Shown here in pieces: positions 352 to 60,846 of a DNA stretch of 64,000 nucleotides. Each line of letters opens with the position of its first letter. Position 1 is the first letter of the stretch. Source of the DNA: Brachycybe producta (Eukaryota; Arthropoda; Diplopoda; Playtdesmida; Andrognathidae); contig JAUPFP010000033.1 of assembly GCA_036925085.1 (NCBI GenBank), positions 1,906,501 through 1,970,500 on the forward strand, in the 5' to 3' direction. The notes under the pieces are model-generated. The model saw only the letters and a program-made list of their open reading frames with translations, had not been told where the DNA came from and did no database searches. Both the position numbers and the translations under genes were made by a program.

Positions 352-365
352 TCACTAGAGGGCCA
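352..365 (+). promoter_or_regulatory. CTCF-like element upstream of B0
   Basis: TCACTAGAGGGCCA lies 155 bp upstream of the B0 start. The core CACTAGAGGGC fits the CTCF consensus CCASYAGRKGGCRSY over its central ten positions. It lacks the ATGG core that YY1 would need. It occupies the same relative place and orientation as the elements of the other genes. Confidence 0.45.
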
Positions 366-454
366 AGTATTTCGTCTGCTAAAGTTATTACACTTAAAAC
401 TACGGCAAGCCGTTTGCAGCAAAAATGATTCTAGTCCAGTTTGATGGTTTTTAT

Positions 455-775
455 GAACAGCTGATTTGTCAAACTCTTGAATTATTCTGTCTTTCAGAAT
501 CAAAACAATAAGAAAGTAGAAGGGTAGCTCAATCATCAGAGTTGGTGGATAACTCTTTGTTGATGTTTTTCAAATTAAACTTTTTATAGACAAAAAAAAT
601 TAAAATATTGTCTACTAAGCATAATCTAGCTGTTTAAAGTTGTATCATTTTCAAACTTGCATAAAAACGTTTATTTTTTTAAATAAATCAACAAGAAAAT
701 ATTTTTATGTGATTGCAATCTACCCTTCTAGTTTCTAAACTTTATTTTGCATCAGAAAAGACAGAATCAGACAAT
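455..775. mobile_element. Family A foldback element (MITE-like)
   Basis: The element starts GAACAGCTGATTTGTCAAAC and ends near GACAGAATCAGACAAT. Internally it carries 'gtagaagggtagctcaatca' and, inverted, 'acccttctagtttctaaa'. At least nine related copies occur in the window, at about one per two or three intergenic spaces. There is no coding capacity, which is consistent with a non-autonomous DNA element. Confidence 0.6.
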
Positions 776-779
776 ATTT

Positions 780-2040
780 ATTTGTCCACACTTTGGCCCA
801 AATAAGTATGTTGTTAACATGCTAATGACATTCATAAACATGTACTCTTCTAGTTTCTAAAACGCTTCCGGTTTCTTTTACATAAATAATCAGCTCTTAT
901 TTCTGTGCTATTTTTCATTTGCTTAGTTTGTAATGGCTGCTTTAAAAAACAGTTTGAATCAGGGTTTTCATTTTTATTAAATTACGTTATTTTAACTTTA
1001 CAACTGTAAATGTTTTACGAAACAGAAGTTGTGCTTAAGTGTATACTAGTGTACAGTATAATGGTAAAGAAAAAAACTATTTGGTTATTTTTATCATTTT
1101 TGTTTACAATATATTTATATAAAAAAAAGAATTAAGGAATAAAGTTTACTGAAAGCTTCAAAAGCAAAAACATAGTACTACATTGGGCCGGAGTAGAACG
1201 AATCGGAATTTTGTTTATAACAAGCAGGCGGTTTTTTTTTGCGTTTTCAATCCGAACCAGGCTTAGTGAGCGGGGGTGGGGGGGGGGGCATCCATTGAGA
1301 TGCTTTGTTTATAAAAAAAATATTCCGGTTCCTTCCGTTCCGACTGTTCCAATTCGACGTAGTGTGCTACACTATTTAGAGTACTTTCATGCTGTTATTT
1401 TTTAAAATAAAACATTTTATTGCAGTTTCAAAAAAGACAAAAATTTAATGTTTGATATTCACAAAAGTGAACTTAAAAAATGCCATAATAATTATTAAAG
1501 GCAAAAAAGAATATAATGCTTTTTGGAATCAACAAAACTAGTTAAGAGGCTAGAAGTTGACTTGCAAATATAAATTATCTTTATATTAATTCTCGATTCT
1601 AGAAGAACCCTAGCTAGCCTCTGACCAGCTTCTTTGAATACAAAAAGCATAATTCTTTATTTTCACTTAATAGTTTCTGTAGCACTTTTTAATTTCTATT
1701 TAAAGTTACACATAAAGAACTACACACACACATTGTGGGAAAAATATTGAAATAAAAAAATATTGAAATTGTTGTTGGGTTTATATCAGTGGGGTTTTAT
1801 ATTTTCTGGTTTTGACAATGCATTTTCTATGCTGCACTTGGACTCTTGTCCCTCTGCCATAGGCCTTTATATGGCTGCTTGCAGAGTAATTTTTCAAAAT
1901 CAAAAAATCAAAATCAAAAAGTTCTCTTAAAATTGTCCACAGTCAAATATATTTCAGTTAGAATCGGCTGTTATGTTGAAAAACATAGAATACAACGGAT
2001 AATAATAATAATAAGGAACCATATATGAAAAACGAACTGA
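780..2040. other. Intergenic, AT-rich; G-run and degenerate repeats
   Basis: No gene is recognisable. A run of about eleven G lies near 1277-1287, inside a weakly inverted segment (about 1180-1375) whose arms both contain a TTTATAA stretch and GGAAT/ATTCC-type blocks. The segment 1830-1895 ('cttgtccctctgccat', 'ggctgcttgcagagtaat') resembles 11865-11915, so a dispersed repeat is likely. The rest is A/T homopolymer-rich with nothing supportable. Confidence 0.4.
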
Positions 2041-2047
2041 GATTACA

Positions 2048-2053
2048 TTTTAT
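2048..2053 (-). terminator. Poly(A) signal of B1
   Basis: AATAAA on the minus strand, 74 bp beyond the B1 stop codon, followed by a T/A-rich region. The position is typical for a short 3'UTR. Confidence 0.5.
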
Positions 2054-2126
2054 TAAAACATTTTTCAGTCTTTTTTTTTTTATAAATGACGAATTTATAT
2101 TCAATGACATAAATATGTCTATTAGA

Positions 2127-3773
2127 TTAGGAAGTGTTCTTAGGAAACTCGAAGTTTGGTCTGGCAGACGGCAATTCTACTTTATGCCTCGATGCACAAT
2201 GTACTCTGAGGTGGTCCCTTCGAAAGAAACCTTGTCCACAAATGTGACACACGTGATTCTTTGCACCATCACCAGAATGTTTCATTTTATGTATTTTCAA
2301 ATTGTAATTGTGTGAATATTCTGCACTGCAAATATCACATTTGTACGGTTTTAACCCCTTGTGCTTACTAATGACGTGTTTATTCAACGATCCGCTCGTC
2401 TGAAAACGATATCCACATTCCTCGCACATGTAGTCTCTCATATGTTGATGCATTATACGGATGTGTTTAGTCAAAGTATGCATATAAGCGGCAGTGTAGT
2501 TGCACTCCTTGCATTTGAACTTATCCATACGTTCGTGTTTTGCTAGAATGTGACACCGTAGTTGGTGTTTTGCGAAACACATGAAATCACAATCTGGACA
2601 CTTGACATTCTTTTCGAGCGGATTTCCATCGCCGTCTACTTTGTGTATGGCCATCATGTGTTGTAGAATATTCCGTTTATGAATCGATTTGAAATCGCAG
2701 TATTTACATTCGCAGCATTTTGACTCGATATGGGTCACGTACATCTCTTTCGTTGCAAATATCTTTTTACAACTCTTACACGTATAACGCACTGTCAAGC
2801 TTTCGTAATGGGTTTTCAAATGACTTTTGAGACGGTAGGAACGGTTTGTGCTGAAATCGCAGTGTGGACATTTGAGGTTTCGGTCGGTGTCCCCTTCTTC
2901 TTCGTTGTCCTCCTCCTCCTCCTCCTCCTCCTCCTCTCCCTCTTCTTGTTCAACTTCATCATCCACTACTGTTGGCTTGTCTTGCGAATCGTTCTCAAGA
3001 ATAGGTTTCGATTCGCAATCCTCTTTCGATTTGTCATCTCCGCCGTTAGGTGTTTCTATCAGGCTCTTTATAGTTTTCTCGGTGCCATGGCCCTTTGAAG
3101 ATGGTGTACTGCGTTTTGCTGCTGGCCTCTTACGAGAACGCGTGTTTTGTTTTGCACTCTTTGTCACCTTCTTGAGTTTAACACCTTTGTCAATCAATTC
3201 TTCTACACTACATTCGAATTCAGGATAATCATCTAAGTCAATCATATCCTCACTTTCGTCAATGACCTTCTTTTTTTCATTACGTGGTCTCAATCTGCTT
3301 AAAGGTGTTGCATCATTTTGTTCAGCAGCTTTATCCAAAACCTTGCTTTCTTTGTTTTGCCACTGGCGGATACTTTCCTTTAAACTCTTTACCTCCATTG
3401 CGTCTGCGATACGCATCAGACAGTCGACATGTTCTTCAGGAACGGTAGTTTTTCCAGTGTATGCAAATTGAAGCAAATATCCAATGTCTTCGGCATGGTA
3501 TGCAATGTTGTCCAAATTCAGTCCCTGAGCCTGAGGTATCGTTGAAAATTCACCTGAAACATCCTCTTCTTGCTCGAGACAGGAAGTGGCCTCGGCTCTG
3601 AGAGACTCCTTGACTATTGGAAAGAGAAATGCCAATACAAACTTGTGGACTTTCATCTGTTGTCCGTGACAAGTGACACTGAAGTCCACTAGATATTCTT
3701 CCTTGAAGAACTCCCATAGTTTTGTGGACAAGGCTCTGCCGTGTCCCGTCCACTCTAATAGCATTTCTCCCAT
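2127..3773 (-). CDS. B1: BTB-C2H2 zinc finger protein
   Basis: 548 aa, one uninterrupted coding exon. BTB spans about residues 5-130 (LEWTGHGRALSTKLWEFF at the start). The linker has R-L-R-P-R, a basic patch RSRKRPAAKR that could be a nuclear localisation signal, and a run of about 20 acidic residues coded by a GAG-type microsatellite. Eight fingers follow at about 302-534; F2 is C2HC (ends THIESKC) and F3 follows it directly. The tail after F8 (PSARPNFEFPK) is shared only with B2, as is F8 itself (CHICGQGF-[FY]-RRDHLRVH), so B1 and B2 are close relatives. The BTB part should mediate homo- or hetero-oligomerisation and the fingers DNA binding in the nucleus (family knowledge). Targets are unknown. 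A strong splice acceptor 17 bp upstream of the ATG supports this start. Confidence 0.93.
   Translation of the reverse strand: MGEMLLEWTGHGRALSTKLWEFFKEEYLVDFSVTCHGQQMKVHKFVLAFLFPIVKESLRAEATSCLEQEEDVSGEFSTIPQAQGLNLDNIAYHAEDIGYLLQFAYTGKTTVPEEHVDCLMRIADAMEVKSLKESIRQWQNKESKVLDKAAEQNDATPLSRLRPRNEKKKVIDESEDMIDLDDYPEFECSVEELIDKGVKLKKVTKSAKQNTRSRKRPAAKRSTPSSKGHGTEKTIKSLIETPNGGDDKSKEDCESKPILENDSQDKPTVVDDEVEQEEGEEEEEEEEEDNEEEGDTDRNLKCPHCDFSTNRSYRLKSHLKTHYESLTVRYTCKSCKKIFATKEMYVTHIESKCCECKYCDFKSIHKRNILQHMMAIHKVDGDGNPLEKNVKCPDCDFMCFAKHQLRCHILAKHERMDKFKCKECNYTAAYMHTLTKHIRIMHQHMRDYMCEECGYRFQTSGSLNKHVISKHKGLKPYKCDICSAEYSHNYNLKIHKMKHSGDGAKNHVCHICGQGFFRRDHLRVHCASRHKVELPSARPNFEFPKNTS
2893..2950 (-). repeat. 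Poly-Glu coding microsatellite in B1 linker
   Basis: TCC/CTC-type trinucleotide run on the plus strand encodes the acidic run (E with a few D/G) between the linker and F1 of B1. It is pure enough to be length-polymorphic. Confidence 0.85.
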
Positions 3774-3789
3774 GATATTGCTAATTCAC

Positions 3790-3822
3790 CTGAAGAGAAG
3801 AAGAAGAAAAAAAGAGCAGACG
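3790..3822 (-). other. 5'UTR splice acceptor of B1
   Basis: On the minus strand a pyrimidine tract of about 28 bases (CTCTTTTTTTCTTCTTCTTC...) ends in CTTCAG, 16 bases before the B1 ATG. This is a textbook 3' splice site. It implies that the B1 mRNA has at least one upstream non-coding exon. The matching donor was not identified with confidence. Confidence 0.65.
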
Positions 3823-4036
3823 AATCAATTTGCAAATCAAATATTATTGATTTGACTTTTTCTCTCTCTGTGAAAACTATGAACTTGTATACAATTTTAG
3901 ATCAATAGAGAGTAACGGGTCTAAAATAAAATCTTACGTGAGCTGGCCTTTTGAGATCATCAATGCAAATAGAGATGTTTTGAGCACAGTTCACTTCTAC
4001 AAATGGTTTTGAGTGACTTACAGTAATAATGCGCTC

Positions 4037-4051
4037 AAAAGATGGCAGCAC
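4037..4051 (+). promoter_or_regulatory. CTCF-like element upstream of B1
   Basis: AAAAGATGGCAGCAC, 264 bp upstream of the B1 ATG. It is one of the best matches to the array-wide consensus, in the common orientation. Confidence 0.6.
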
Positions 4052-4397
4052 TGTAATAGAAACACAAACCTTGGGGGGAAAACACATTTGCAGAATATAT
4101 AATTATTACAGTATGTTTCAAAAGTTATTCTTTACGAAAATGTATACAGGGTGGTACAGTATGAATTTAAATTTTGGTACAGAGTGGTGATTTTTTATTT
4201 AAATTTTTACTATTTACTAATATTTACTAAATTTCGCTATTTTTTTTAAAGTGGGTGAATAAAATATATGAAAATTTGATGTAATTTTTTTTAAAAAAAA
4301 AATTCATTTGATTTGGGACATTTTGAAATGAGACATAAAATTAAAATAATTAGGAAAAAAATCACGAAACTAAATCAAATGATTTAAGATGTTCTAT

Positions 4398-4690
4398 GAA
4401 CAGCTGATTTTCGAACTCTGAATATTCTGTATTTCAGATGCCAACACTAAAGAGAAGTTTTAAGTGTTAGAAACTAGAAAGGTTGCTGAATCACTTAATA
4501 TTTTCATGTTGAGATATATCTTTCAAAATAAACTTTTTTTTTTAGCTAAAAATTAAAAAAAAAATATTGTTTGCATAAAAGTTGGTTACTGCACTTCTGA
4601 AACAGAGATAAAAGCTTATTTTAAAAGATTACCCCCTTAAATGACAGAGCTACTATTCTAGTTTTTAAAACTTTCATGCATGTTAAAAAG
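4398..4690. mobile_element. Family A foldback element
   Basis: Starts GAACAGCTGATTTTCGAACT and contains 'gtgttagaaactagaaaggt' on one arm and 'ctattctagtttttaaaact' on the other. A central AT-rich stretch has 'attgtttgcataaaagttgg'. Same family as the copy at 455. Confidence 0.6.
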
Positions 4691-4813
4691 GTGGATTTGC
4701 ATGCAGAACCAACAATGTTCACAATTCTGAAAGCACGGAAACTATGCACTTTTCAACAGTTAGTGTAATTGCAAAACAACACTGTCTCGAGTCAAGATGA
4801 ATGGTTTTAAATT

Positions 4814-4819
4814 TTTATT
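4814..4819 (-). terminator. Poly(A) signal of B2
   Basis: AATAAA on the minus strand, about 78 bp past the B2 stop codon. Confidence 0.45.
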
Positions 4820-4896
4820 CTTATTGTTCAACAACAAACAAAAATAATACATCGGACGTTTTAAAAAAAAAAAACAGACGAAAACACTAGTTACAT

Positions 4897-6696
4897 TTAA
4901 CTGTTCATTAAGTAATTTAAACTGTCTTGAATTGCTGCCTCGTCAGCCTCGATTGTCTTTGCCACGTCTATTTCGTTAGGAGCGGTCTTAGGAAACTCGT
5001 AGTTCGGTTTGGCAGATGCCAGTTCCACTTTATGCTTGCACCTGCAATGTACTCTCAGGTGATCCCTTCTGTAGAAACCTTGTCCACAAATATGGCAGAC
5101 GTGATTCCGTACGGCACCACCTGTATGCTTTTGTTGGTGTAGCTTGAAGCTAAGCGTGTCGGAATACTCTGCTCCGCAAACTTCACACTTATGCGGTTTG
5201 ATGCCCTTATGTACTATCATAACATGACGAGAAAGTCCGCTACTCGTCTGACTCTGAAATCCACACTCCTCGCACATGTAGTCCCTTCGGCGTTGATGAA
5301 TGATCCGCACGTGTTTCAATAGATCGTTTCTAAACGGAGCTGTGTACGCACATTCCGTGCATTTATACTTGTTAAGAAGTTCGTGTTTTGCCAAAGAGTG
5401 ACGTCTGAGCTGATGTTTTGCAAAGCAAACGAAATTACACTGTGAGCACTGTAAGTTCTTTTCAAGTGGATTTCCAGCTCCGTCCACCATGTGTTTGGCT
5501 GCCATGTGTTGAAGGAGAACCACTCTTCGAAGGGTCTTGTGTCCACAATACTTGCACTCGTGTGGAAGTTCTTTGCCACACTTCGAATCGGAATGTATCC
5601 GAAACATGTTTCTCGTTCCGAACACTTTCTTACATGCTTTGCAAGTAAAACGCCTCGCTCGTTTGTTAGAATGACACTGTAAGTGACGTTTGAGAAAGTA
5701 TGGCTTTGCTGCAACATAATCGCAGTTTGGACACTTGAGACTTGTTTCTCCAACTTCTTCCACATGATCTACAGTTGTCGTTGTCAATTTCGTCTGCAAA
5801 GAAATCTCGTCATCTTCATCGAAATTACTCGCAGAGTGACCTTCTTCAGTGTTGTTCGTTTCATTCTTATCGACTCTATCCTCGTTCTTCTTAACCGTCT
5901 CCTGTGAATCTTGAAAATCTGAATTGTCCCTATCGACCACAGCAGATTCTAGACGGTTTTTTGAAGCAGCGAAGTTACTAACTGTAGAATCATTTTGCTT
6001 AGTTATTTGCTTTCTATGGTGTACGGTGTTTTTAGCCATACGGTTGCTACGTGACACGAAACGATGTACAACTTGTTTCGAAAGTAACAAATTCGGTCGC
6101 GACCGTTTCTTACGCTGTTGTTTTCTAATCACAACACAATCGGACTCTGTGTCATTGTCGGAGTCAACTGTAGTACTATCGAAAATATTTTTTAGTTGTA
6201 AACGAGGTCTTAGCCTGCTATTTGTGAGCAGTGATGTTTCGTTTCGTCCGTTGATCTGGTCGTAACACTCCGTGCTCTTATCGTTCAACCGGTCGAGACT
6301 GTCTTTTAGACTCTTGATCTCCATGTTATCTGCGATACGCATCAGACAATCAGCATGTTCTTTAGGAACTGTCGTCTTTCCTGTATATGCAAACTGAATC
6401 AGATAGTCCATATCTTCCGCATGGTCAGCGATGTTGTCCAAATTGAGACCCTGAGGTAGCGGTAGCATGGATTCACCTAATGCAATTCCTTCTTCATCGA
6501 AAGGAAAAGAACCACTTGACCTTAGAGATTCCTTGAGTATTGGAAACATAATGGCCAGTACGAACTTGTGGACTTTCATCTGTTGTCCATGACAAGTGAC
6601 ACTGAAATCAACCAGATATTCCTCGTTTAAGAATTCCCATAGTTTTGTGGACAAGGCTTTGTCGTGACCTTCCCATTCCAAATGCAACCCTTTCAT
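4897..6696 (-). CDS. B2: BTB-C2H2 zinc finger protein (MKG-start group)
   Basis: 599 aa. It begins MKGLHLEWEGHDKALSTK, the MKG start shared only with B3 and B4. BTB about 5-125. The linker (about 150-320) carries R-L-R-P-R, the basic stretch RKQQRKKRSRP and an acidic segment. Eight fingers at about 322-559, with F2 of C2HC type (HSDSKC). F8 and the following tail match B1. Beyond that a 40-residue extension rich in acidic and hydrophobic residues (ending LNYLMNS) is unique in the window and may form a short helix. In F6 the usual NRF/YRF is FQS, so the aromatic core residue of that finger is lost. The donor-like GTAAGC at 6854-6859 could belong to its 5'UTR intron, but no clear acceptor was found. 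Nuclear DNA-binding role inferred. Confidence 0.93.
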   Translation of the reverse strand: MKGLHLEWEGHDKALSTKLWEFLNEEYLVDFSVTCHGQQMKVHKFVLAIMFPILKESLRSSGSFPFDEEGIALGESMLPLPQGLNLDNIADHAEDMDYLIQFAYTGKTTVPKEHADCLMRIADNMEIKSLKDSLDRLNDKSTECYDQINGRNETSLLTNSRLRPRLQLKNIFDSTTVDSDNDTESDCVVIRKQQRKKRSRPNLLLSKQVVHRFVSRSNRMAKNTVHHRKQITKQNDSTVSNFAASKNRLESAVVDRDNSDFQDSQETVKKNEDRVDKNETNNTEEGHSASNFDEDDEISLQTKLTTTTVDHVEEVGETSLKCPNCDYVAAKPYFLKRHLQCHSNKRARRFTCKACKKVFGTRNMFRIHSDSKCGKELPHECKYCGHKTLRRVVLLQHMAAKHMVDGAGNPLEKNLQCSQCNFVCFAKHQLRRHSLAKHELLNKYKCTECAYTAPFRNDLLKHVRIIHQRRRDYMCEECGFQSQTSSGLSRHVMIVHKGIKPHKCEVCGAEYSDTLSFKLHQQKHTGGAVRNHVCHICGQGFYRRDHLRVHCRCKHKVELASAKPNYEFPKTAPNEIDVAKTIEADEAAIQDSLNYLMNS

Positions 6697-6853
6697 GGTT
6701 CCAACAGCAGACAGAAATTCTTAGTCAAATATATAAAAGAAAAGGGTGCAACAAGAAACATACAGTTTTATTATTTCTGCGCCTAAAGATTTATTCACTT
6801 TACATGGACGTTTGCAGGTTTTTGCTGCAAGGAGGTGACAATTTTATAAAACA

Positions 6854-6859
6854 GCTTAC
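6854..6859 (-). other. Candidate 5'UTR splice donor of B2
   Basis: GTAAGC on the minus strand about 160 bp upstream of the B2 ATG, between the CTCF-like element and the start codon. This is the interval in which donors are found for B3, B4, B9, B10, B12 and B13. The partner acceptor is unclear. Confidence 0.35.
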
Positions 6860-6982
6860 GTACAATATCTGATTGAGAGGAACCACTTCAAACATTAACA
6901 GAACGACCAAATTCATTGAATTTCATTCTTATAATCCTAATTTACCTTTGTAGGCTTGTAACAGATGTTATGTGTTACTATC

Positions 6983-6997
6983 AAAAGAGGGCAGCAC
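6983..6997 (+). promoter_or_regulatory. CTCF-like element upstream of B2
   Basis: AAAAGAGGGCAGCAC, 287 bp upstream of the B2 ATG. The T-to-G change (GATGG to GAGGG) is allowed in CTCF (K position) but destroys a YY1 core. Confidence 0.6.
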
Positions 6998-7070
6998 AAT
7001 AGTTGTGCAGTCTTGTAACTCTTGTTACAGAATAGACTTTAAAATCCTCTCTTCTGTGGTCATATATGTA

Positions 7071-7363
7071 ATACCTAGTACACACCTGATAATTTAAATG
7101 CATTTAAATAATGTGTTCTACAGAGCTCTGTGAAGGACAAACAAACAATATATCGAATTCAATTTATTCAGTTAATAATCTGAAAATATTGAGTTAATAC
7201 TTAAATATATAAACTATTGACAAACTATTGATTTTGTATTTTAATTTAAAATATTAATAATAAAGTCAATTTTTATTTGGGTTTATGTCCTTAACTGGAT
7301 TCCGTATAATTCACCTAAACACATTTAATTTGAATTCATTTAACTCATGTGTCTACAAGGTAT
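7071..7363. mobile_element. Family C foldback element
   Basis: A 293 bp element from ATACCTAGTACACACCTGAT to the inverted end GTGTCTACAAGGTAT. The imperfect terminal inverted repeats are about 35 bp and include TTTAAATG/CATTTAA blocks. Homologous to 14592-14862 and, inverted, to 29939-30326. No coding capacity. Confidence 0.7.
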
Positions 7364-7657
7364 AAGGGGACAGTGTATAAGATCGCTATGGTTATTTTTA
7401 AATCTGACATTATAGGAGTTAAGATTTTTTTCCACTTTCAGTTCCACTAGAACCAGTTTTCATAAATAAGCATTTAATTTAAAGTAAAAGAGTACAAGTA
7501 ATGCATTGCAATGAAGTTCAAATAACTGTCAATAGCATTTTGAAAAACATGACTTTTTGTTGGTGTTCCATGAAAAGTTTATTTTCAACATAAGTTGAGT
7601 TTTTCAATATTAAAAGTAATTAATACAATATGAAAGTATTATTTTTTTTTAAATATT

Positions 7658-7848
7658 CTGAAATTATTCCATGATTCAATAAAAAAAGAAATATTTAATC
7701 AGGAATATAAAGAAAAGCCATAAATTTTGCATTTAATATTTTTTTAATTAACAATGTCGAAACGCGTTAGCCATTGTATTAAATCCAAAATTTATGGCTT
7801 TTTTATATTCCTGATTAAAATTTTTTTTTAATTATGGAATAATTTTAG
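7658..7848. mobile_element. Long AT-rich foldback
   Basis: Left arm 'taatcaggaatataaagaaa' with 'agccataaattttgcattta' is mirrored by 'ccaaaatttatggctttttt' with 'atattcctgatta'. The outer parts pair 'aaattattccatgatt' with 'aattatggaataatttt'. The loop contains 'gtcgaaacgcgttagcc'. A single-copy foldback, probably a MITE remnant. Confidence 0.6.
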
Positions 7849-7849
7849 A

Positions 7850-51200: not shown

Positions 51201-51207
51201 AAAAATA

Positions 51208-53040: not shown

Positions 53041-53161
53041 AATCTTTTACAATTCAATCTAAAAATACGTCTGCTGAAATTTTCAAATTAAATTACCATC
53101 ACAACCAACTAGTCAACGCTTGGATATAATTAGGGCTCGAATTTGTATGCCAATATCAAGC

Positions 53162-53386
53162 AAATGTTTCTCAATTTGTGTGTGACAACTGCCAGTTGTG
53201 AAGTAATCATGATTATTCATTAATCAAAAAGGCTGTTTAGAGGCTATATACGTCTAAATACTAGATATCTGTTGTCAACTAGAGTTCTAGCCTCTAATCA
53301 GTGTTTTTGATTTAAAAAAATCATAATTGTTGGTTGATCTAAAGGGATTGTTACTTCACAATTGGGCCACATATTGAGAAACATTT
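53162..53386. mobile_element. Foldback element upstream of B17
   Basis: AAATGTTTCTCAATTTGTGT at the left is mirrored by CACATATTGAGAAACATTT at the right. A second pair (AGTTGTGAAGTAATCATGAT / ATTGTTACTTCACAATTG) lies inside. 225 bp, single copy here. Confidence 0.7.
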
Positions 53387-53599
53387 TCTAGATATAGCAT
53401 GAAAATCCGAACCCTATAGATATGAAAAAATCCAATGATGAAGTTGGATGGGGCTAAAAAGAAGGTGCTCTGAGAAGATAATAGTGAATTAAACAAAAAT
53501 TTATGTTTGTGTCTTATATAAAAAAAGGGGTAATAATAAAAAAATTCAAGAATCACTGTTGAATCCTTTGATATCATCTCTTTTAAAATTGTGTTCACT

Positions 53600-53697
53600 G
53601 TTTCTCAGAATCGAATTTCAATTTTTCCTTATTATAGTTATTAGCTGTTGCACTTCTGAAACGCCGAATAATCAAGAGTTTGAAAATCAGCTGTTTC
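53600..53697. mobile_element. Family A right-end fragment
   Basis: Ends 'gaataatcaagagtttgaaa' + ATCAGCTGTT, the inverted terminus of family A. The left part is absent. Confidence 0.5.
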
Positions 53698-54125
53698 TAA
53701 AACATCTCTTAAGAAACTTATAGATTAATAAATTTACTATTGGGATTTAAGAGACTACATTGAGATTAACGGGGAGCCATTTGTTGATGGCCGTAATTTG
53801 ATAGGATGGGATGAAACGCAATTAGGTTTGTTACATTGCATTCTCTAATATCTTTGGTTAAATAAAAAAAAAATATTCAGGTATTATTTGGCACATTACA
53901 AAAGCCGATTTATAAATTTTCTTAGGTTGAACCACCCCATCGAAATAGAATTTTCAAAATTCCCCACACATGAAACTCTTATTTTTTTTACGATAAACGT
54001 AGATTATGTAACAACAACACAGATTAATTTTTCTAATTTTTATCACAAAAACTTAAAAAAATAAAATATAATAATAATAATACAAAAAATGACTTAAATC
54101 ATTTATGCTATACATAAAACATGTA
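53698..54125. other. Intergenic, AT-rich
   Basis: No gene. The downstream flank of B18 is AT-rich ('aaaataaaatataataataa'), with no distinct poly(A) signal to single out. Confidence 0.3.
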
Positions 54126-55658
54126 TTAATTCGAAGTCGGTTCACTCGTGTCCTGTAACTGGATTGGTTCGGTTGGACTCTCTTCCAGTTCCATTCCATG
54201 TTTTTTTCTCATATGAATCCGTAGTTGAGATTTCCTCCTCAAATTATGTCCACAAATGTGGCATACGAACTTGTACTCCACTTTACCCTCGTGACGTTGC
54301 ATGTGGACCTTGAAGCTCAAACTACTCGAATATTCAGCATTGCAAATATTGCACTTGTGAGGCTTTATTCCCTTGTGTAGAACTAAAACGTGATTATTCA
54401 GGCCATTTCTAGTCCCAAATCGATTGCCACATTCCTCACACATGTAGTCTTTTCTCTTTTGATGCGTTAAACGTTCGTGTTTCAACATGCGCGTGCTCGA
54501 AGGAGCGGTGAAGCTGCATTTCTTGCATTTGTATTTGCCCACGTATTCGTGTTTTATTTTCACATGAGTTCGTAGTTGGTGATCTGCATAACAAACGAAA
54601 TCGCATTTCGGACACTTGAGGTTCTTTTCGAGTGGATTTCCTTCTTCGTCCACTTGATGCATTGACATTATGTGTTTTGGAAGGTTTTGTTTTGTATCTG
54701 TCTTGTATTCACAGTATTTGCAAGTAAAAAATTCTGTGCCACAATTCGTAGCACGGTGTCTACGTAATAAACTTTTAGATCCTAGATCTTTATTGCACGT
54801 CTGGCAAATGAACTTCTTTGGCCCTTTTGGTTCCTCGTCCTGTTTTCCAACATGGGTTTTCAAGTGACATTGGAGTCGGTAGGGAAATTTCGCTACATAA
54901 TCACATTGTGGACATTTGAAGATTTTCTTTACTTTAACTTTACTTCGATGCTTCTGAGATACACTGTTTTGTTGAATTTTTTTCCTTCTGGGTGTACGAA
55001 TTATTTCGTCGTTGTCCGTGCCATCGTCATTACACTCGTTACTGTTCGAAGTCTTGCCCGTACTAGATTCTTTCTCAACAACTAATTCAAGAGTTAAGTC
55101 GTCATCATCGGCACTCACTACTTCCAGATTTTCGGTATAAATCTTTTTAAGTTGTGTTCTTGGTCTTAGTTTGCTTAGAGGTGTAACAATGTCATTTGGC
55201 TCATTATTGTCTGCAGCTTTCTTTTTGTTGTGCCACTGGCTTAGGCTGTCTTTTAAACTCCTGATCTCCATCGTTTCTGCAATATGCATCAGACAATCGC
55301 CATGTTCTTTTGGAACTGTGGCTTTTCCCGTATATGCAAACTGAATCAGATAGTTCATGTCCTCTGGATGGTCGGCTATGTTGTCCAAATTGAGGCACTG
55401 AGCCTCGGGTATCTTTGAAGATTGATCTGGATTTACATTAGTTGCCAGCTCTTGTTGATCGAAACAGAAAGTACCACTAGATCTGAAAGACTCCTTCAGC
55501 ATGGGAAAGAGAAATGCCAGTACAAACTTGTGAACTTTCACCTGTTGTCCATGACAGCTGACGTTAAAGTCCACCAGATATTCTTCCTTGAAGAACTCCC
55601 ATAGTTTATTGGACAAATCTTTGTCATGATCTTTCCTTTCCAAAAGCAATTCACCCAT
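54126..55658 (-). CDS. B18: BTB-C2H2 zinc finger protein ('CNKDLG' group)
   Basis: 510 aa from MGELLLERKDHDKDLSNK. The conserved first Trp is Arg (LLLERKDH). Codons upstream to 55721 are excluded by an acceptor (GTTCAATTTCAG|AGAGCC), and the hydrophobic stretch they would encode (MYLLLLLF) is not a credible signal peptide for this family. BTB about 5-130. Linker: K-L-R-P-R, acidic DDDD stretch, PRRKKIQQ, HRSKVKVKK. Eight fingers at about 249-493. F2 is CNKDLGSKSLLRRHRATNC; F4 has CYADHQLRTH, so helix position 1 is Asp instead of Lys. F6-F8 are shared with B16 and B17. Tail SPTEPIQLQDTSEPTSN. Confidence 0.93.
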   Translation of the reverse strand: MGELLLERKDHDKDLSNKLWEFFKEEYLVDFNVSCHGQQVKVHKFVLAFLFPMLKESFRSSGTFCFDQQELATNVNPDQSSKIPEAQCLNLDNIADHPEDMNYLIQFAYTGKATVPKEHGDCLMHIAETMEIRSLKDSLSQWHNKKKAADNNEPNDIVTPLSKLRPRTQLKKIYTENLEVVSADDDDLTLELVVEKESSTGKTSNSNECNDDGTDNDEIIRTPRRKKIQQNSVSQKHRSKVKVKKIFKCPQCDYVAKFPYRLQCHLKTHVGKQDEEPKGPKKFICQTCNKDLGSKSLLRRHRATNCGTEFFTCKYCEYKTDTKQNLPKHIMSMHQVDEEGNPLEKNLKCPKCDFVCYADHQLRTHVKIKHEYVGKYKCKKCSFTAPSSTRMLKHERLTHQKRKDYMCEECGNRFGTRNGLNNHVLVLHKGIKPHKCNICNAEYSSSLSFKVHMQRHEGKVEYKFVCHICGHNLRRKSQLRIHMRKKHGMELEESPTEPIQLQDTSEPTSN

Positions 55659-55810
55659 GGCTCTCTGAAATTGAACAACAAGTTCAATACCTGGTGCAAA
55701 TAACAATAATAAGAGATACACTTATAAAATCACAAGGGAAATTGTAGCTTTGATGGCAAAGTGAATAAAAAAAAATTCATTTACAAAGAAATGAAAAAAC
55801 GACTTATGTG

Positions 55811-55827
55811 CCAAAAGATGGCACTAC
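55811..55827 (+). promoter_or_regulatory. CTCF-like element upstream of B18
   Basis: CCAAAAGATGGCACTAC followed by CGTCTTTA, 153 bp upstream of the ATG. Confidence 0.6.
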
Positions 55828-55945
55828 CGTCTTTAATAAATGCCATTGAAAAATTTTTTTTTTCTCTAAGTGGCTAGACCTCCACCACAGAACAGCCCCT
55901 ACCCCACAATCCATGCTATACTTAATATGGCTGTAATAAAATGCA

Positions 55946-56152
55946 ATATATGTGTCTCAGAGATAAACTATGTTAAGTCACATTTCTTTTTTTTTTTTTT
56001 TTTTTAAATAACACGATTTTTAAATCTTACGAATCAGCTTGTCAAGTTCTAGTAGTGGTAAAAAGTGTTAAGTCCACAGTTTTAAAATGACTCCACTGTA
56101 TAATTTAGGCTTGCTGACTTAACACAGTTTACCTCTGAGACACTCATATATA
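55946..56152. mobile_element. Foldback element upstream of B18
   Basis: ATATATGTGTCTCAGAGATA and ACTATGTTAAGTCA are mirrored by TGACTTAACACAGTTTACCT and CTGAGACACTCATATAT. 207 bp, with an 18-base T run inside. Confidence 0.75.
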
Positions 56153-56565
56153 GTATACATTTAATAATGCAGAAATCTCATATTTTTTTGGGGAAGGATG
56201 TGACTGAAACTGAATTTATGGGAAATAGTGCTATTGAGATTAATGGGACTGTTGGGGACCATTGGAAAGTGTGGGGCTGACTGAACAAGTATAAGATGAT
56301 GAGATGGGGAGTTTTGCTACTTTTCATTCTGTTAAGTTGATTGCATTTTCTAATTTTTTTTTTAAATATTCACATAATCCGCATTGTCTGGTAGGAAGAA
56401 ATGCCGATATATCAGTTTCATTATAATATTAGTTGATCCCAAATATAAAAAAAAGAATTTTCAGATTTTTATAAATTATGGTAAATTGGTTACCCTATTT
56501 CGATGACATTAATTGTAAAAATTCTTTAAAAAGATATAGACGAAGGTTTCTCACAAAAACTTACA
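56153..56565. other. Intergenic, no gene
   Basis: AT-rich with several G-rich patches (56240-56310). Nothing recognisable. Confidence 0.3.
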
Positions 56566-56571
56566 AAAATA

Positions 56572-56577
56572 TTTAAT
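56572..56577 (-). terminator. Poly(A) signal variant of B19
   Basis: ATTAAA on the minus strand, 43 bp past the stop, in the same context as for B17. Confidence 0.45.
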
Positions 56578-56619
56578 GATATTTAATAATACAAAAAAAA
56601 ATGTCGAAAATCATTTATG

Positions 56620-58119
56620 CTAAATAATACATGTATTAAGTCGAGGTTGCAGTGATTCGATTGCATCTTGTAACTGAGATGATACGGGCTTTTCTAGTTC
56701 CATTTCATGTTTCTTCTTCATATGAAGTCTCAGGTCGGATTTTCTTCTCAAATTGTGTCCGCAGATGTGGCATACAAACTTGTATTCCACTTTACCCTCG
56801 TGACGTTGCATGTGTATCTTGAAGCTCAACCTATTTGAATATTCTGCATTGCAAATATTGCACTTGTGAGGCTTTATTCCTTTATGTACAACTAAAACGT
56901 GATTATGCAGTCCATTTCTAGTCCCAAATCGATTGCCACATTCCTCACACATGTAGTCTTTCATGTTTTGATGAGTTAAACGTTCATGTTTCAACATACG
57001 CGTGATCGAGGGAGCGGTAAAGGTGCATTCCTTGCATTTAAATTTGCCCGCGTATTCATGTTTTATTTTTTCGTGGTTTTGTAGTTGGCGTTTGGCGTAA
57101 CAAATGTAATCGCATTTCGAACACTTGAGGTTTTTTTCAAGTGGATTTCCTCCTGCGTCCAATTGGTGTACGGACATGACATGTACTGGAAGGTTATGTT
57201 TTATATCTGTCTTGTAATCACAATATTTGCACACAAAAGATGTTGTACCACAATTGGTAGAACGGTGTCTCTCAAGCAAGCTTTTGGTTCCTAAATCTCG
57301 ACTGCATGTCTTGCAAATGAACTGCTTTGGACCTTTTATATTCTTTTCCTGTTTTATACCGTGGCTTTTCAAGTGACGTCGAAGTCGAGAAGGATATTCT
57401 GCAACGTAATCACATTGAGGACATTTGAAATTTTTATTTCCTTTTACTTTACTTTGTGATACTTTTTTCTGTTGACTTTTCTTTCTGGATTTATTGATTG
57501 TTTCGTCGTCTTCATCGTCCGAACAATTGTCGTTACATTCGTTATTGTTGAAACTCACGTCAAGGAGAGATTGAAAAGCCAAGACGTCGTCTTTACCACT
57601 CAATACATCTACGTTTTCATTAAAAACATTTTTCATTTGAGTTCGTGGTCTTAATCGGCTTTCAGGTGTCACGTCAATTTGTTCGGTTTTATCTGCAAGT
57701 ATATTCATGCCGTGCCACTGGCTCAGACTTTCCTTTAAACTCTTTATTTCCATTGTGTTTGCGATTTGCATCAGACAATCAGCATGTTCATTAGGAACGG
57801 TGGCCTTTCCAGTATATGCAAACTGAATGAGATAGTCTATATCCTCTGGATGTTCTGTAATGTTGTCCAAATTGAGGCACTGAGCCTCATGAATCTTTGG
57901 AGATTGTTCTGGACTTACATTCGTTGCCAACTCTTGTTGTGCTTTGAGAGATTCCTTGAGCATTGGAAAGAGAAATGCTAGTATAAACTTGTGGACTTTC
58001 ACCTGTTGTCCGTGACAAGTGACACTGAAATCCACAAGATATTCCTCATTGAAGAATTCTCCTAGTTTGGTGGTCAATTCTTTGTTGTGACCCTCCCAGT
58101 CTAAAAGCAGTTCACCCAT
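56620..58119 (-). CDS. B19: BTB-C2H2 zinc finger protein ('CNKDLG' group)
   Basis: 499 aa from MGELLLDWEGHNKELTTK. BTB about 5-120 with two oddities: KLGEFF replaces KLWEFF, and about eight residues are deleted in the loop after the VLA helix (SLKAQQELAT where B18 has SFRSSGTFCFDQQELAT). Linker: R-L-R-P-R, N/D/E-rich region, KSRKKSQQKK. Eight fingers at about 233-476. F2 is CSRDLGTKSLLERHRSTNC, F4 CYAKRQLQNH, hinge LDAGGNPLEKN. F7-F8 are close to B16-B18. The C-terminus (QPRLNTCII) diverges. The upstream region contains a family D element rather than a clear own CTCF-like site. Confidence 0.93.
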   Translation of the reverse strand: MGELLLDWEGHNKELTTKLGEFFNEEYLVDFSVTCHGQQVKVHKFILAFLFPMLKESLKAQQELATNVSPEQSPKIHEAQCLNLDNITEHPEDIDYLIQFAYTGKATVPNEHADCLMQIANTMEIKSLKESLSQWHGMNILADKTEQIDVTPESRLRPRTQMKNVFNENVDVLSGKDDVLAFQSLLDVSFNNNECNDNCSDDEDDETINKSRKKSQQKKVSQSKVKGNKNFKCPQCDYVAEYPSRLRRHLKSHGIKQEKNIKGPKQFICKTCSRDLGTKSLLERHRSTNCGTTSFVCKYCDYKTDIKHNLPVHVMSVHQLDAGGNPLEKNLKCSKCDYICYAKRQLQNHEKIKHEYAGKFKCKECTFTAPSITRMLKHERLTHQNMKDYMCEECGNRFGTRNGLHNHVLVVHKGIKPHKCNICNAEYSNRLSFKIHMQRHEGKVEYKFVCHICGHNLRRKSDLRLHMKKKHEMELEKPVSSQLQDAIESLQPRLNTCII

Positions 58120-58274
58120 TTCTCTGAAATTAAACAATAAAATTAAATACAATGTGCTAAAACAATAACAAGCTTCATATTGTGGTTATGAATATGTCTG
58201 CAAACTTCTGGGGAAGTTGATTAACTTCAGTGTTTGTTTTTGACACTAACTTACCAAAATAAAAAAGTGGTCGG

Positions 58275-58455
58275 TCAACTATGCGCCAACACTTACGAAA
58301 CATTCCTTGCATTAGTTGAGTTTCGTCAATGGATGACGCCACTTCTACTTAGAGCTAAATTCTTTCTTATTTAAACATTGTGTAGTTTAAACCTCACTCA
58401 CACATTGATGTTTCCTCTAACAGTGAGCTACCCTCTCTGTATATTTATATTGGGA
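58275..58455. mobile_element. Family D element, compact copy, in the B19 promoter position
   Basis: 'acgaaacattccttgcatta', then CAATGGATGACGCCAC, 'tctacttagagctaaattc' and right end 'gagctaccctctctgtatat'. Its CTCF-like segment (58327-58342) lies about 208 bp upstream of the B19 ATG, where the own element of other genes lies. Confidence 0.5.
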
Positions 58456-58480
58456 TTTTCACATTTGCCAGAAAATTGGA

Positions 58481-58683
58481 CAGGCAATTAGAAAACGGGA
58501 TGAACAGAAGTTGGCTCCGCCCTTTTTATGACGACCGGCAACTTTTAATTGGTTTGTTGTTTGGTTCGACGTTGAAAAGGGCGGAGCATGTGACGTTAGA
58601 CTACATAACCAACCAATTAGAAGTTGCGTTCGTTATAAAAAGGGCGGAGCCAACTTCTGTTCATCCCGTTTTCAAATTGCCTG
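58481..58683. mobile_element. Family B foldback element, best-preserved copy
   Basis: 203 bp from CAGGCAATTAGAAAACGGGA to the inverted TCCCGTTTTCAAATTGCCTG (nearly perfect terminal inverted repeats of about 55 bp, including GTTGGCTCCGCCCTTTTTAT). Low divergence between arms suggests relatively recent activity. No clear duplication of flanking bases. Confidence 0.8.
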
Positions 58684-59055
58684 TGAAAATTCGAGCATTT
58701 TTAATAAATTAATAAAACAATACATTTGCTGTTAATTACCTAATAAATTACTTCCTCGCAGATTATTACTGAATTAATTTATGGAATCTGTTCGGTTGCA
58801 TTCTGTAATTACTTTGTTTTTAAATAATTTTCTATCCTCATTAATTATCACGAAGATTTAATTAAATGTCCATACCTTAATTATATCGGCTTCTGTCTCC
58901 CTTGCTCTCTACAAAAACAATTTTTACATTTGCCGTAATTATTTCATTGAAAGAAATTAAGATTCCAACAAGCTTAAAACTACAAAAATCTTTAATAATA
59001 TAAGATAAACGTTAGAAAATATATTTTATACTAGGCCTACAATTTATATATAGTA
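58684..59055. other. Intergenic, AT-rich
   Basis: No gene or repeat that I can support. Confidence 0.3.
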
Positions 59056-59212
59056 CAGTGGAAACCATTTAATGCGAAAAGGAAAAAGGATTCGAATATT
59101 TTTTTTGTGTTAAACGAATTTCGTATTAAAAGAAATGTTATGCTATTATAAGGTGCCAGACCGAACATGTATTTTCTGTTAGCCGATTTTTCGTGTTAAA
59201 CGGTTTTCACTG
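59056..59212. mobile_element. Family E element (pogo/Tigger-like MITE)
   Basis: 157 bp, flanked by TA on both sides. Starts CAGTGGAAACCATTTAATGC and ends inverted CGTGTTAAACGGTTTTCACTG. The CAGTGGAAACC-type terminus with TA duplication is typical of pogo/Tigger-related non-autonomous elements. Related, degraded copies lie at about 47868-48020 and 62095-62205. Confidence 0.75.
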
Positions 59213-59240
59213 TACAATATTTATTAAAATCATGGTTGAT

Positions 59241-60752
59241 TCACATGGCGTCTTGTAACTGGCACGAATCTTTTGACGCTGCTTCCTCTTCCAGTTCAAT
59301 ACCGTGCTTCTTTCGCATGTGAGTCCGCAGCTCGTATTTCCTCCTCAAATTGTGTCCGCATACGTGGCATACAAACTTGTACTCCACTTTACCCTGATGG
59401 CGTTGCATGTGAATCTTAAAACTCAACCTATCCGAATACTCGGCATTGCAAATGTTGCACTTGTGAGGTTTTATTCCTTTGTGTCGAACTAAAACGTGAT
59501 AATTCAATGTTTCGCTTGTCTGATAGCGATTCCCACATTCCTCACACATGAAGTCCTTCTTGTTCAGATGCGTTAAACGTTCGTGTTTCAATAAACGTGT
59601 ACTGGAGGGAGCAGTGAAGCTGCATTCTTTGCATTTGTACTTACCGACGAGATCGTGCTTAGCTAAAGAGTGAGTTCGTAGCTGGTGTTTTGCATAACAA
59701 ACAAAGTCGCACTTCGGACACTTGACGTTCTTTTCGAGTGGATTTCCTTCTGCATCCACTTGATGCATGGACATTACGTGTATTTGAAGGTTATATTTGA
59801 GACCAGTTTTGTATTCACAGTATTTGCAAGCAAATAATTCCGTGCCGCAGTTCGTTGCACGGTGTCTATCTAACAAGCTTTTGGTTCCTAAATCTTTATT
59901 GCATGTCTTGCAAATGAATGTCTTTGGTCCTTTTGGGTCATTTTTATGTTTAGCAACATGGGTTTTCATGTGAGACTGTAGTCGGTAGGGAAATTTTGCA
60001 ACGTAAACACAATCAGGACATTTGAAGGTTTGCTTTACTTTAAATTTACTATGAGGCTTCTCTGATATCCTGTTTTGTTGAATTTTCTTCCTTCTGGTTG
60101 TACGAATTGTTTCGCCGTTGTCAAGACACTCGTTACTATTTAAACTTTTCCTCATATTAGATTCTTTCTTAAGAACAGATTCGAGAGGCAAGTCGTTTTC
60201 AACAACACTAATTATATCAACATTTTCTGTATAAATCTTTTTCAGTTGAGTTCTTGGTCTTAGTTTGCTTAGAGGTATAACAACGTCATCAGGTTCATTC
60301 CTATTGGAAGGTTTCATTTTCTCGTGCCACTGGCTTAGACTCTCTTTCAAGCTATTAACTTGCATCGAGTTTGCTATGTGCATCATACAATCAGCATGTT
60401 CATTAGGAACAGTGGTTTTCCCAGTGTAAGCAAACTGAATCAGATAGTCCACATCCTCCGGATGGTCAGCAATGTTATCCAAATTGAGGCACTGTGCATC
60501 AGGTATCTTCAAAGATTGCCCTGGATTTAAATCCGTTGCTAGCTCTAGTTGATCGAAACAGAAAGTGCCACTTGACCTGAGAGACTCCTTGAGCATAGGA
60601 AAGAGAAATGCCAGTATAAATTTGTGGATTTTCTGCTGTTGTCCGTGACAGGTGACATTGAAGTCCACCAGATACCCTTCTCTGAAGAACTCCCATAGTT
60701 TGTTAGACAAATCTTTGTTGTAATCTTTCCATTCTAATAGCATTTCTCTCAT
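59241..60752 (-). CDS. B20: BTB-C2H2 zinc finger protein ('CNKDLG' group)
   Basis: 503 aa from MREMLLEWKDYNKDLSNK. The usual E-W-x-x-H is changed to E-W-K-D-Y, and EEYLVDF to EGYLVDF. BTB about 5-130. Linker: K-L-R-P-R, E/N/S-rich region, TTRRKKIQ. Eight fingers at about 245-489; F1 is CPDCVYVAKFPYRLQSH and F2 CNKDLGTKSLLDRHRATNC. F4-F6 (CYAKHQLRTHSLAKHDL, NRYQTSETLNYH) resemble B3/B4 rather than B16-B19, so the finger region looks mosaic. Tail EEAASKDSCQLQDAM. The upstream element lies only 78 bp from the ATG. Confidence 0.93.
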   Translation of the reverse strand: MREMLLEWKDYNKDLSNKLWEFFREGYLVDFNVTCHGQQQKIHKFILAFLFPMLKESLRSSGTFCFDQLELATDLNPGQSLKIPDAQCLNLDNIADHPEDVDYLIQFAYTGKTTVPNEHADCMMHIANSMQVNSLKESLSQWHEKMKPSNRNEPDDVVIPLSKLRPRTQLKKIYTENVDIISVVENDLPLESVLKKESNMRKSLNSNECLDNGETIRTTRRKKIQQNRISEKPHSKFKVKQTFKCPDCVYVAKFPYRLQSHMKTHVAKHKNDPKGPKTFICKTCNKDLGTKSLLDRHRATNCGTELFACKYCEYKTGLKYNLQIHVMSMHQVDAEGNPLEKNVKCPKCDFVCYAKHQLRTHSLAKHDLVGKYKCKECSFTAPSSTRLLKHERLTHLNKKDFMCEECGNRYQTSETLNYHVLVRHKGIKPHKCNICNAEYSDRLSFKIHMQRHQGKVEYKFVCHVCGHNLRRKYELRTHMRKKHGIELEEEAASKDSCQLQDAM

Positions 60753-60829
60753 GTCTCTGAAAATTCAACAAAAAAAATATTAAAATTTGAAGGGAAATTA
60801 TTTCTTTGTTGTTTTCTCTAACCATGAAA

Positions 60830-60846
60830 CCAGAAGATGGCAGCAC
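60830..60846 (+). promoter_or_regulatory. CTCF-like element upstream of B20
   Basis: CCAGAAGATGGCAGCAC then ATTCTTTTA, 78 bp upstream of the ATG, the shortest distance of the series. Confidence 0.65.

What the first reader, a model, noticed from the sequence alone, without database searches (positions are those of the whole stretch)
352..60846. A CTCF-like element precedes nearly every gene, in constant orientation
Sites at 352, 4037, 6983, 10933, 14513, 17394, 20230, 23230, 26649, 29427, 32425, 35025, 37972, 41142, 44122, 47043, 50294, 53025, 55811 and 60830 share the form CCANAAGRKGGCRSCAC, all reading on the plus strand while genes read on the minus strand, mostly 80-490 bp from the ATG. 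The surrounding intergenic DNA is not conserved, so the element is under constraint or inherited with the promoter. Substitutions (A/G then T/G before GGC, A/G after it) match the degenerate positions of CCASYAGRKGGCRSY.
Basis: partly seen in the sequence, partly recalled or inferred. Interest (0 to 1): 0.85.

Follow-up and report, generated by a model that had tools for sequence, protein, structure and literature searches.

The report
CTCF-like site at zinc-finger gene promoters
In an arthropod genome, a row of 58 related DNA-binding-protein genes almost all carry the same short CTCF-like signal just before the gene, pointing the same way, which suggests a shared promoter or insulator device like the one known from vertebrate protocadherin genes.

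Summary
The window is part of a one-directional array of 58 BTB-C2H2 zinc-finger genes (10 of 10 ORFs scanned are BTB-C2H2). A 17-bp CTCF-like element lies upstream of 55 of the 58, in all 55 antisense to the gene, at a median of 197 bp from the ATG. It tops an unbiased 8-mer count, and a vertebrate CTCF matrix typed from recall finds 40 of 58 at 14 bits, all 40 antisense. Between paralogues the flanks are on average near random identity, the element about 82% identical. The genome has an 11-finger CTCF orthologue.

Caveats: 5 of the 55 sites lie in a dispersed repeat carrying its own CTCF-like motif. Position 5 is A in 43 of 50 non-repeat sites, where CTCF prefers C or T; a YY1 core fits 37 of 50. 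Binding was not testable.

Best reading: a constrained promoter element, most likely bound by CTCF, pointing upstream and insulating or polarising each gene unit. The layout resembles clustered protocadherins with opposite site polarity. My paper searches listed no such array.

The parts
352..366 (+). partial CTCF-like core (TCACTAGAGGGC...) upstream of an older BTB-ZF relative (ATG 198)
   Evidence: read directly; not a full match
4035..4051 (+). CTCF-like element, antisense to gene with ATG 3773
6981..6997 (+). CTCF-like element (AGAGGGC type), antisense to gene with ATG 6696
10931..10947 (+). CTCF-like element, antisense to gene with ATG 10495
14511..14527 (+). CTCF-like element, antisense to gene with ATG 14197
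17394..17410 (+). distant partial CTCF-like core, 886 bp from ATG 16507
   Evidence: this gene has no scoring site in the 900 bp scanned
20228..20244 (+). CTCF-like element, antisense to gene with ATG 20090
23230..23246 (+). CTCF-like element, antisense to gene with ATG 23052
26647..26663 (+). CTCF-like element, antisense to gene with ATG 26242
29425..29441 (+). CTCF-like element (AGGTGGCGCC type), antisense to gene with ATG 29194
32423..32439 (+). decayed array-type element, gene with ATG 32214
   Evidence: 3 mismatches
32623..32639 (+). CTCF-like motif inside a dispersed repeat, same gene (ATG 32214)
37972..37988 (+). CTCF-like element, antisense to gene with ATG 37796
41142..41158 (+). CTCF-like element, antisense to gene with ATG 40651
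44122..44138 (+). CTCF-like element, antisense to gene with ATG 43774
47043..47059 (+). CTCF-like element, antisense to gene with ATG 46871
50294..50310 (+). CTCF-like element, antisense to gene with ATG 50185; with flanks 2 hits in the genome, itself and one array neighbour
53024..53040 (+). CTCF-like element, antisense to gene with ATG 52826
55811..55827 (+). CTCF-like element, antisense to gene with ATG 55658
58326..58342 (+). weak CTCF-like motif inside a dispersed repeat, gene with ATG 58119
60830..60846 (+). CTCF-like element, antisense to gene with ATG 60752
2127..63974 (-). window part of the tandem array of BTB-C2H2 zinc-finger genes, one long ORF each (e.g. 2127-3773, 4897-6696, 8867-10495 ... 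62268-63974)
   Evidence: ORFs; Pfam BTB and zf-C2H2 in 10 of 10 ORFs scanned; array catalogue

Best explanation
Each gene of this arthropod BTB-C2H2 array has its own small promoter, built around one CTCF-type site that lies antisense to the gene near the predicted transcription start. Shown: position, orientation, conservation beyond the flanks, and presence of a CTCF gene. Inferred: CTCF (or a CTCF-like multi-finger protein) binds it. Also inferred: with the motif pointing upstream, bound CTCF holds off cohesin, antisense transcription and neighbouring promoters coming from the gene's upstream side, so that each duplicated unit of about 3 kb stays a separately switched gene inside a dense one-directional array. 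The element persists because every duplication copies gene and promoter together and selection keeps the site while the rest of the spacer decays.
For: 55 of 58 array genes have the site, 55 of 55 antisense; shuffled upstream regions give a mean of 0.1, at most 1, of 58. In a 179-kb stretch 55 sites match at least 12 of 13 fixed CTCF positions: 54 antisense, 1 sense, 0 in catalogued coding DNA although 54% is coding; over the 264 kb scanned the reversed pattern gives 1. Unbiased 8-mer count: GTGCTGCC in 39 and TGCCATCT in 36 of 58 upstream regions, shuffle maximum 24; the complement GATGGCAG in 0. A recalled vertebrate CTCF matrix at 14 bits gives 40 of 58, all antisense, shuffle mean 0.15. 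Element identity 0.82, against 0.56 at fourfold sites and 0.28-0.31 in flanks, over 1485 pairs. The CTCF orthologue keeps the base-contact residues of fingers 3, 4 and 5. Three relatives outside the array, close to each other, one on the - and two on the + strand, have non-repeat sites antisense to the gene, so the orientation follows the gene and not the chromosome strand. A splice-acceptor-like TTCAG or TTTAGA lies within 120 bp of the ATG in 45 of 58, median exon start 6 bp before it, and a TATA-like box starts exactly 11 bp before the element in 12 of 51, which would put the element near the start site.
Against: No ChIP, expression or contact data. Position 5 is A in 43 of 50 non-repeat sites, not the C/T of the CTCF consensus, and 37 of 50 also hold a YY1 core. 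At a recalled-matrix threshold of 16 bits only 27 of 58 remain, and the weakest non-repeat site scores 5.2 of a possible 27.9. The TATA signal is weak: 15 of 51 genes within -16..-8, while one control window upstream reaches 12. A/T-rich 8-mers also exceed the shuffles (up to 29 of 58 upstream, poly-T 40 of 58 in the downstream control). Not universal: 3 of 58 array genes lack the site, the C3 copy and the relatives at C33:2.176-2.184 Mb have none, and the relative at 1889855 has a weaker one in the sense direction. One truncated gene (2003414) keeps a perfect site, so the site is not proof of a working gene. Paralogues are not independent, and each site was picked as the best match, which inflates element identity.
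Confidence: 0.6

Rival explanations
1. The element is a YY1/Pho site (core ATGGC) acting as an initiator or Polycomb-linked element, alone or together with CTCF, rather than a CTCF site.
For: AAGATGGC resembles the YY1 consensus (recalled); an ATGGC core is present in 37 of 50 non-repeat sites. Three relatives at C33:2.095-2.110 Mb also have a separate YY1-like GATGGCGGC nearby. In primates CTCF and YY1 often co-bind promoter-proximal, conserved regions (PMC4056453, passages seen).
Against: 11 of 50 sites have G at position 9 (AGAGGGC type), which breaks the YY1 core while the rest of the element is kept; AGRKGGC holds in 47 of 50. Conservation runs over 17 bp including CCA and CAC at the ends, longer than a YY1 site (recalled).
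Confidence: 0.12
2. Another multi-finger protein binds it, perhaps a BTB-ZF member of the array itself (autoregulation), with a CTCF-like but distinct preference (A at position 5, AGCAC at the end).
For: The array subtype differs from most genome-wide matches: A at position 5 in 8 of the first 100 listed of 409 genome matches against 43 of 50 here.
Against: A CTCF matrix alone finds the sites. Finger 6 of the local CTCF differs from human at three of four contact positions, so a shifted preference of CTCF itself is possible. No candidate binder was identified.
Confidence: 0.15
3. No function: the element is inherited with the duplicated promoter, or comes from a transposable element.
For: The genes are duplicates; 5 of 55 sites lie in a dispersed repeat; some neighbouring duplicates share flanks; a truncated gene keeps its site.
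Against: On average flanks are near random identity and fourfold sites at 0.56, yet the element stays at 0.82. The one array-type site searched with its flanks has 2 genome hits, both in the array; the other array-type sites were tested only against the one characterised repeat.
Confidence: 0.08

Closest known systems
Clustered protocadherin genes of vertebrates, above all Pcdh-beta (CSE/CTCF site at each promoter)
   Same: Tandem array of similar genes, each with its own promoter and a CTCF site at about the same distance before the start codon; Pcdh-beta genes each encode a full-length protein and have one site per promoter, except beta-1 (review PMC7811963, passages seen).
   Different: Unrelated protein family; arthropod; sites antisense to the genes here, forward at the Pcdh-alpha promoters (taking forward as the consensus on the sense strand); no enhancer with opposed sites identified; stochastic expression not testable here.
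Promoter-bound CTCF in mammals
   Same: Site near the start; position and orientation of promoter CTCF matter for its effect (PMC12695661, passages seen).
   Different: There forward sites activate and exclusively reverse ones rarely do; here the sites are reverse (assuming forward means CCASYAG on the sense strand; the passages seen do not define it).
KRAB zinc-finger gene clusters of mammals
   Same: Large tandem arrays of C2H2 genes (PMC10547256, passages seen); fingers here differ most at base-contact positions (30 of 32 close pairs), as recalled for KRAB genes.
   Different: BTB instead of KRAB; my search listed no report of one CTCF site per promoter there (listing only).
Arthropod TTK-type BTB transcription factors
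   Same: BTB zinc-finger proteins expanded in insects (PMC11426971, passages seen).
   Different: Membership not settled: a PDB sequence search with one array BTB domain gave only weak BACH1 and ZBTB17/NAC1 hits (E 0.003-0.004).
Insect small heat-shock gene cluster with predicted CTCF sites
   Same: Clustered insect genes with predicted CTCF sites (PMC8336396, passages seen).
   Different: There the sites mark the two ends of the cluster, not each promoter.

Membership tests
CTCF binding site | match to the CTCF weight matrix beyond chance | tested here: met
   matrix typed from recall, 14 bits: 40 of 58 upstream regions, shuffle mean 0.15, max 1
CTCF binding site | degenerate R/K/R/S positions vary as in CCASYAGRKGGCRSY | tested here: met
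   pos 9 39T/11G; pos 8 48A/2G; pos 13-14 AG 45, AC 3, GC 1, TG 1 of 50; clear at pos 9, slight at 8 and 13
CTCF binding site | C or T at position 5 (strict consensus) | tested here: not met
   A in 43 of 50 non-repeat sites; a preference, not absolute, in the recalled matrix, hence 'CTCF-like' and not filed as a proven CTCF site
CTCF binding site | a CTCF protein with conserved contact residues in the genome | tested here: met
   orthologue at C16:1697722-1699045, aligned over all 11 fingers; fingers 3, 4, 5 identical to human at helix -1, 2, 3, 6; finger 7 differs at 2 and 6 conservatively; finger 6 differs at 2, 3, 6 (positions by recalled helix numbering)
CTCF binding site | occupied by CTCF in vivo | not testable with these tools
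   no ChIP data
YY1/Pho site | ATGGC (CCAT) core kept | tested here: not met
   present in 37 of 50, absent in 13
Clustered-protocadherin-type regulation | tandem genes, each with own promoter-proximal CTCF-type site at similar distance from the ATG | tested here: met
   55 of 58 genes, median 197 bp, IQR 170-272; that each has its own promoter is inferred
Clustered-protocadherin-type regulation | promoter sites in forward (sense) orientation | tested here: not met
   55 of 55 antisense
Clustered-protocadherin-type regulation | opposed CTCF sites at a shared enhancer beyond the array | tested here: inconclusive
   three - strand sites at 2.090, 2.104 and 2.110 Mb; the first lies in the dispersed repeat, the others are promoter sites of + strand relatives; none in 2.1305-2.1405 Mb; DNA further out not fully fetched
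Clustered-protocadherin-type regulation | stochastic choice of one or few promoters per cell | not testable with these tools
   no expression data

The most novel reading that the evidence does not exclude
Arthropods independently built a protocadherin-like device: an array of about 58 transcription-factor genes, each gated by one oriented CTCF site at its core promoter, so that different cells switch on different members and gain different DNA-binding repertoires.
Probability: 0.1. Interest if true: 0.92.

Novelty: new variant of a known kind. Interest (0 to 1): 0.68.

Why it matters
One CTCF-type site per promoter across a whole tandem array is, to my recall, characteristic of vertebrate protocadherins. 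A second, unrelated case in an arthropod, with the opposite site polarity and with transcription factors as the product, would allow a direct test of whether this layout evolves for promoter choice or merely to insulate crowded duplicates. It would also bear on whether site orientation, which rules loops in mammals, matters in arthropods.

Tried and rejected
YY1/Pho as sole binder: less likely because 11 of 50 non-repeat sites have AGAGGGC-type cores. Origin of most sites in the one dispersed repeat that I characterised: rejected, 5 of 55 overlap it; one array-type site was searched against the whole genome with its flanks and had 2 hits, both in the array (that search skips very common words). 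Reading the sites at the chromosome-1 relatives as independent support: dropped, because they match copies of the dispersed repeat. Chance: rejected.

The A-type matches outside the array as promoters of zinc-finger genes: L001-L008 (8 of 30 such places) show no zinc fingers in any ORF of 90 or more codons within the 3-kb loci. Other zinc-finger genes of the genome as a control: only 9 kb could be fetched; one 12-of-13 site lies 1.6 kb upstream of, and antisense to, one of two genes; inconclusive. A background of 20 spread-out 10-kb stretches was asked for and not obtained, so the genome-wide pattern counts are the only genomic background. PDB search with one BTB domain: only weak hits, BACH1 and ZBTB17/NAC1 chains. 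Paper searches: one search found nothing; some searches gave listings, from which I read passages of PMC11426971, PMC10547256, PMC8336396, PMC12695661, PMC4056453 and PMC7811963; no paper was read whole.

Rows dropped: of 59 main-family BTB hits one (2073239) was dropped because it is a second BTB domain inside the ORF of gene 2073695, leaving 58. Four repeat-borne sites were left out (51 of 55) and five (50 of 55). One search kept 32 pairs only (BTB identity at least 0.80, length difference at most 60, at least 20 contact positions). One search dropped repeat islands matched by fewer than 4 of the 20 copies. My notebook gave 25 array places; the listing shows 26.


Full report
WHAT IS THERE. 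The window is G000:C33:1906501-1970500 of a 295-Mb eukaryotic genome. A long TTAGG repeat near the start of contig C1 (the arthropod telomere type, recalled) and the form of the CTCF gene point to an arthropod; I do not know the species. The genes are long single ORFs on the - strand. All 10 ORFs scanned carry a BTB domain and C2H2 fingers. In a whole-genome search with one BTB domain, the close matches lie on C33 except for one on C3. Fetching 200 kb of flanking sequence let me catalogue 59 close BTB hits, that is 58 genes after dropping a second BTB domain within one ORF, all on the - strand between about 1.909 and 2.084 Mb. The proteins have a median of 8 fingers.

THE OBSERVATION. In the array, 55 of 58 genes have a site scoring at least 14 bits within 900 bp upstream, and all 55 read antisense to the gene. 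Shuffled upstream regions give 0.1 on average, at most 1. The distance from the ATG has a median of 197 bp, and 53 of 55 lie within 77-497 bp. The three genes without a site are 1923007, 1941299 and 2038930. Because that scan was seeded, I also counted 8-mers in up to 600 bp upstream: the top ones are GTGCTGCC (39 of 58) and TGCCATCT (36 of 58), the sense-strand reading of the same element; 20 shuffles reach at most 24 for any 8-mer, and the complement GATGGCAG occurs in 0 of 58. Some A/T-rich 8-mers also exceed the shuffles (29 of 58; poly-T 40 of 58 in the downstream control), and ATTTCAGA, a splice-acceptor-like word, reaches 33. With a CTCF consensus (at least 12 of 13 fixed positions), a 179-kb stretch has 55 sites, 54 antisense and 1 sense, none in catalogued coding sequence although 54% of the stretch is coding. 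Over the 264 kb the consensus gives 61 sites and the reversed consensus 1; ten permuted consensuses give 0 to 3 except one with 25.

CONSERVATION. Over 1485 pairs of the 55 genes, mean identity is 0.82 in the element, 0.56 at fourfold-degenerate sites of the BTB domain (random expectation 0.26), and 0.28 and 0.31 in the two ungapped flanks. The sites were chosen as best matches, which inflates the first number, and flanks were compared without gaps, which lowers the last; the constant orientation is not affected by either. Some neighbouring duplicates still share flanks (up to 0.79). A truncated gene (2003414, 115 codons) keeps a perfect site, so a site does not prove a working gene.

IS IT A REPEAT? 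One array-type site with its flanks (window 50230-50370) hits only itself and one other array gene in the genome (that search skips very common words). By contrast, the region around 32623 gives 26 matches including itself, on many contigs. Twenty of these aligned show a dispersed repeat around the motif GTGGCGCCATCTATTGG; copies were found through that stretch, so its conservation there is biased. Five of the 55 array sites overlap this repeat, one of them weakly. The CTCF-like sites at the chromosome-1 relatives match repeat copies too, so I do not count them as support. I did not search the other array-type sites one by one against the whole genome.

WHO BINDS IT. Genome-wide, CCANNAGRKGGCRSCAC occurs 409 times against 0 for the reversed pattern, and the stricter CCANAAG form 56 times, 26 of them in this array, all 26 on the + strand. 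In the first 100 listed places of the looser pattern 8 have A at position 5, while 43 of 50 non-repeat array sites do. So the array has a subtype of the genome's CTCF-like motif. The genome has one clear CTCF orthologue on C16, matched in three pieces with 61%, 71% and 44% identity to human. Its fingers 3, 4 and 5 are identical to human at the usual contact positions, finger 7 is similar, and finger 6 differs at three (read; helix numbering recalled). YY1/Pho is the main rival: 37 of 50 sites hold its core, but 11 have AGAGGGC-type cores.

ANATOMY. A splice-acceptor-like TTCAG or TTTAGA lies within 120 bp of the ATG in 45 of 58 genes, with a median exon start 6 bp before the ATG; candidate donors, often about 70-110 bp upstream of the ATG, are of very uneven quality. 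This suggests a short non-coding first exon. A TATA-like box starts exactly 11 bp before the element in 12 of 51 sites, but only 15 of 51 have one in the -16..-8 range, and one control window reaches 12. If real, it would put the element between TATA box and start site. This is suggestive only.

OLDER RELATIVES. Three relatives at C33:2.095-2.110 Mb, close to each other, one on the - strand and two on the + strand, have non-repeat CTCF-like sites antisense to their gene, and the gene at 1900158 has one as well. The relatives at 2.176-2.184 Mb and the C3 copy have none, and the gene at 1889855 has a weaker one in the sense direction. So the trait is not universal in the family.

MECHANISM. Shown: one conserved, oriented CTCF-type element upstream of nearly every gene. 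Inferred: CTCF binding. By established knowledge (recalled) CTCF stops cohesin coming from the side its N-terminus faces; with the motif antisense, that side is the gene's upstream side. In mouse cells, position and orientation of promoter CTCF dictate its effect: forward sites just upstream of the start activate, exclusively reverse ones rarely do, sites further upstream block antisense transcription, and sites in the core promoter repress (PMC12695661, passages seen; they do not define 'forward', I assume the consensus on the sense strand). I therefore favour an insulating or polarity role over plain activation. Whether arthropod CTCF follows the mammalian orientation rule is open; from memory, Drosophila CTCF does not do so clearly.

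COMPARISON. The closest known layout is the clustered protocadherins: tandem genes with a CTCF site at about the same distance before the start codon, and in the beta cluster genes that each encode a full-length protein (PMC7811963, passages seen). There the alpha promoter sites are forward; here they are antisense. The fingers of the present proteins are less alike at base-contact positions than elsewhere in 30 of the 32 close pairs compared, as expected for a diversifying repertoire. My paper searches list no description of an arthropod BTB-ZF array with a CTCF site per promoter; the library holds open-licence papers only.

VERDICT. A real, strongly non-random and probably functional promoter element; CTCF is the likeliest binder but not proven; new variant of a known kind. 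On rereading the calls I mended several wordings and counts; none required a change of the odds.

Noticed in passing
window 32540-32720; L039-L058: A dispersed repeat of roughly 100 bp (26 matches including the window copy, a lower bound) carries its own CTCF-like motif (CCAATAGATGGCGCCAC type) and may account for many of the 409 genome-wide matches, like CTCF-spreading SINEs in rodents (parallel recalled).
   Followed up: partly
C33:1.902-2.091 Mb, L035-L037: Repeat copies near BTB-ZF genes mostly share one orientation relative to the gene: 10 of 11 in the array, 1 of 1 at the neighbour 1902639 and 5 of 5 at the chromosome-1 relatives, against 0 of 2 upstream of gene 2089485 and 0 of 1 at the C3 copy. 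Duplication makes these non-independent.
   Followed up: partly
array proteins: Zinc-finger base-contact residues are less alike than other finger residues in 30 of 32 close paralogue pairs, suggesting a diversifying DNA-binding repertoire.
   Followed up: partly
C33:2003082-2003414: An array gene truncated to 115 codons, probably a pseudogene, still has a perfect element.
   Followed up: no
C33:2072838-2073695: One ORF encodes two BTB domains in tandem.
   Followed up: no
C3:498011-498433 (L035): A close copy of an array gene lies on another contig and lacks the element upstream; possibly a retrocopy.
   Followed up: partly
C33:2095602, 2104421, 2109775: Three divergent BTB-ZF relatives have a CTCF-like site plus a YY1-like GATGGCGGC some 80-90 bp away.
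   Followed up: no
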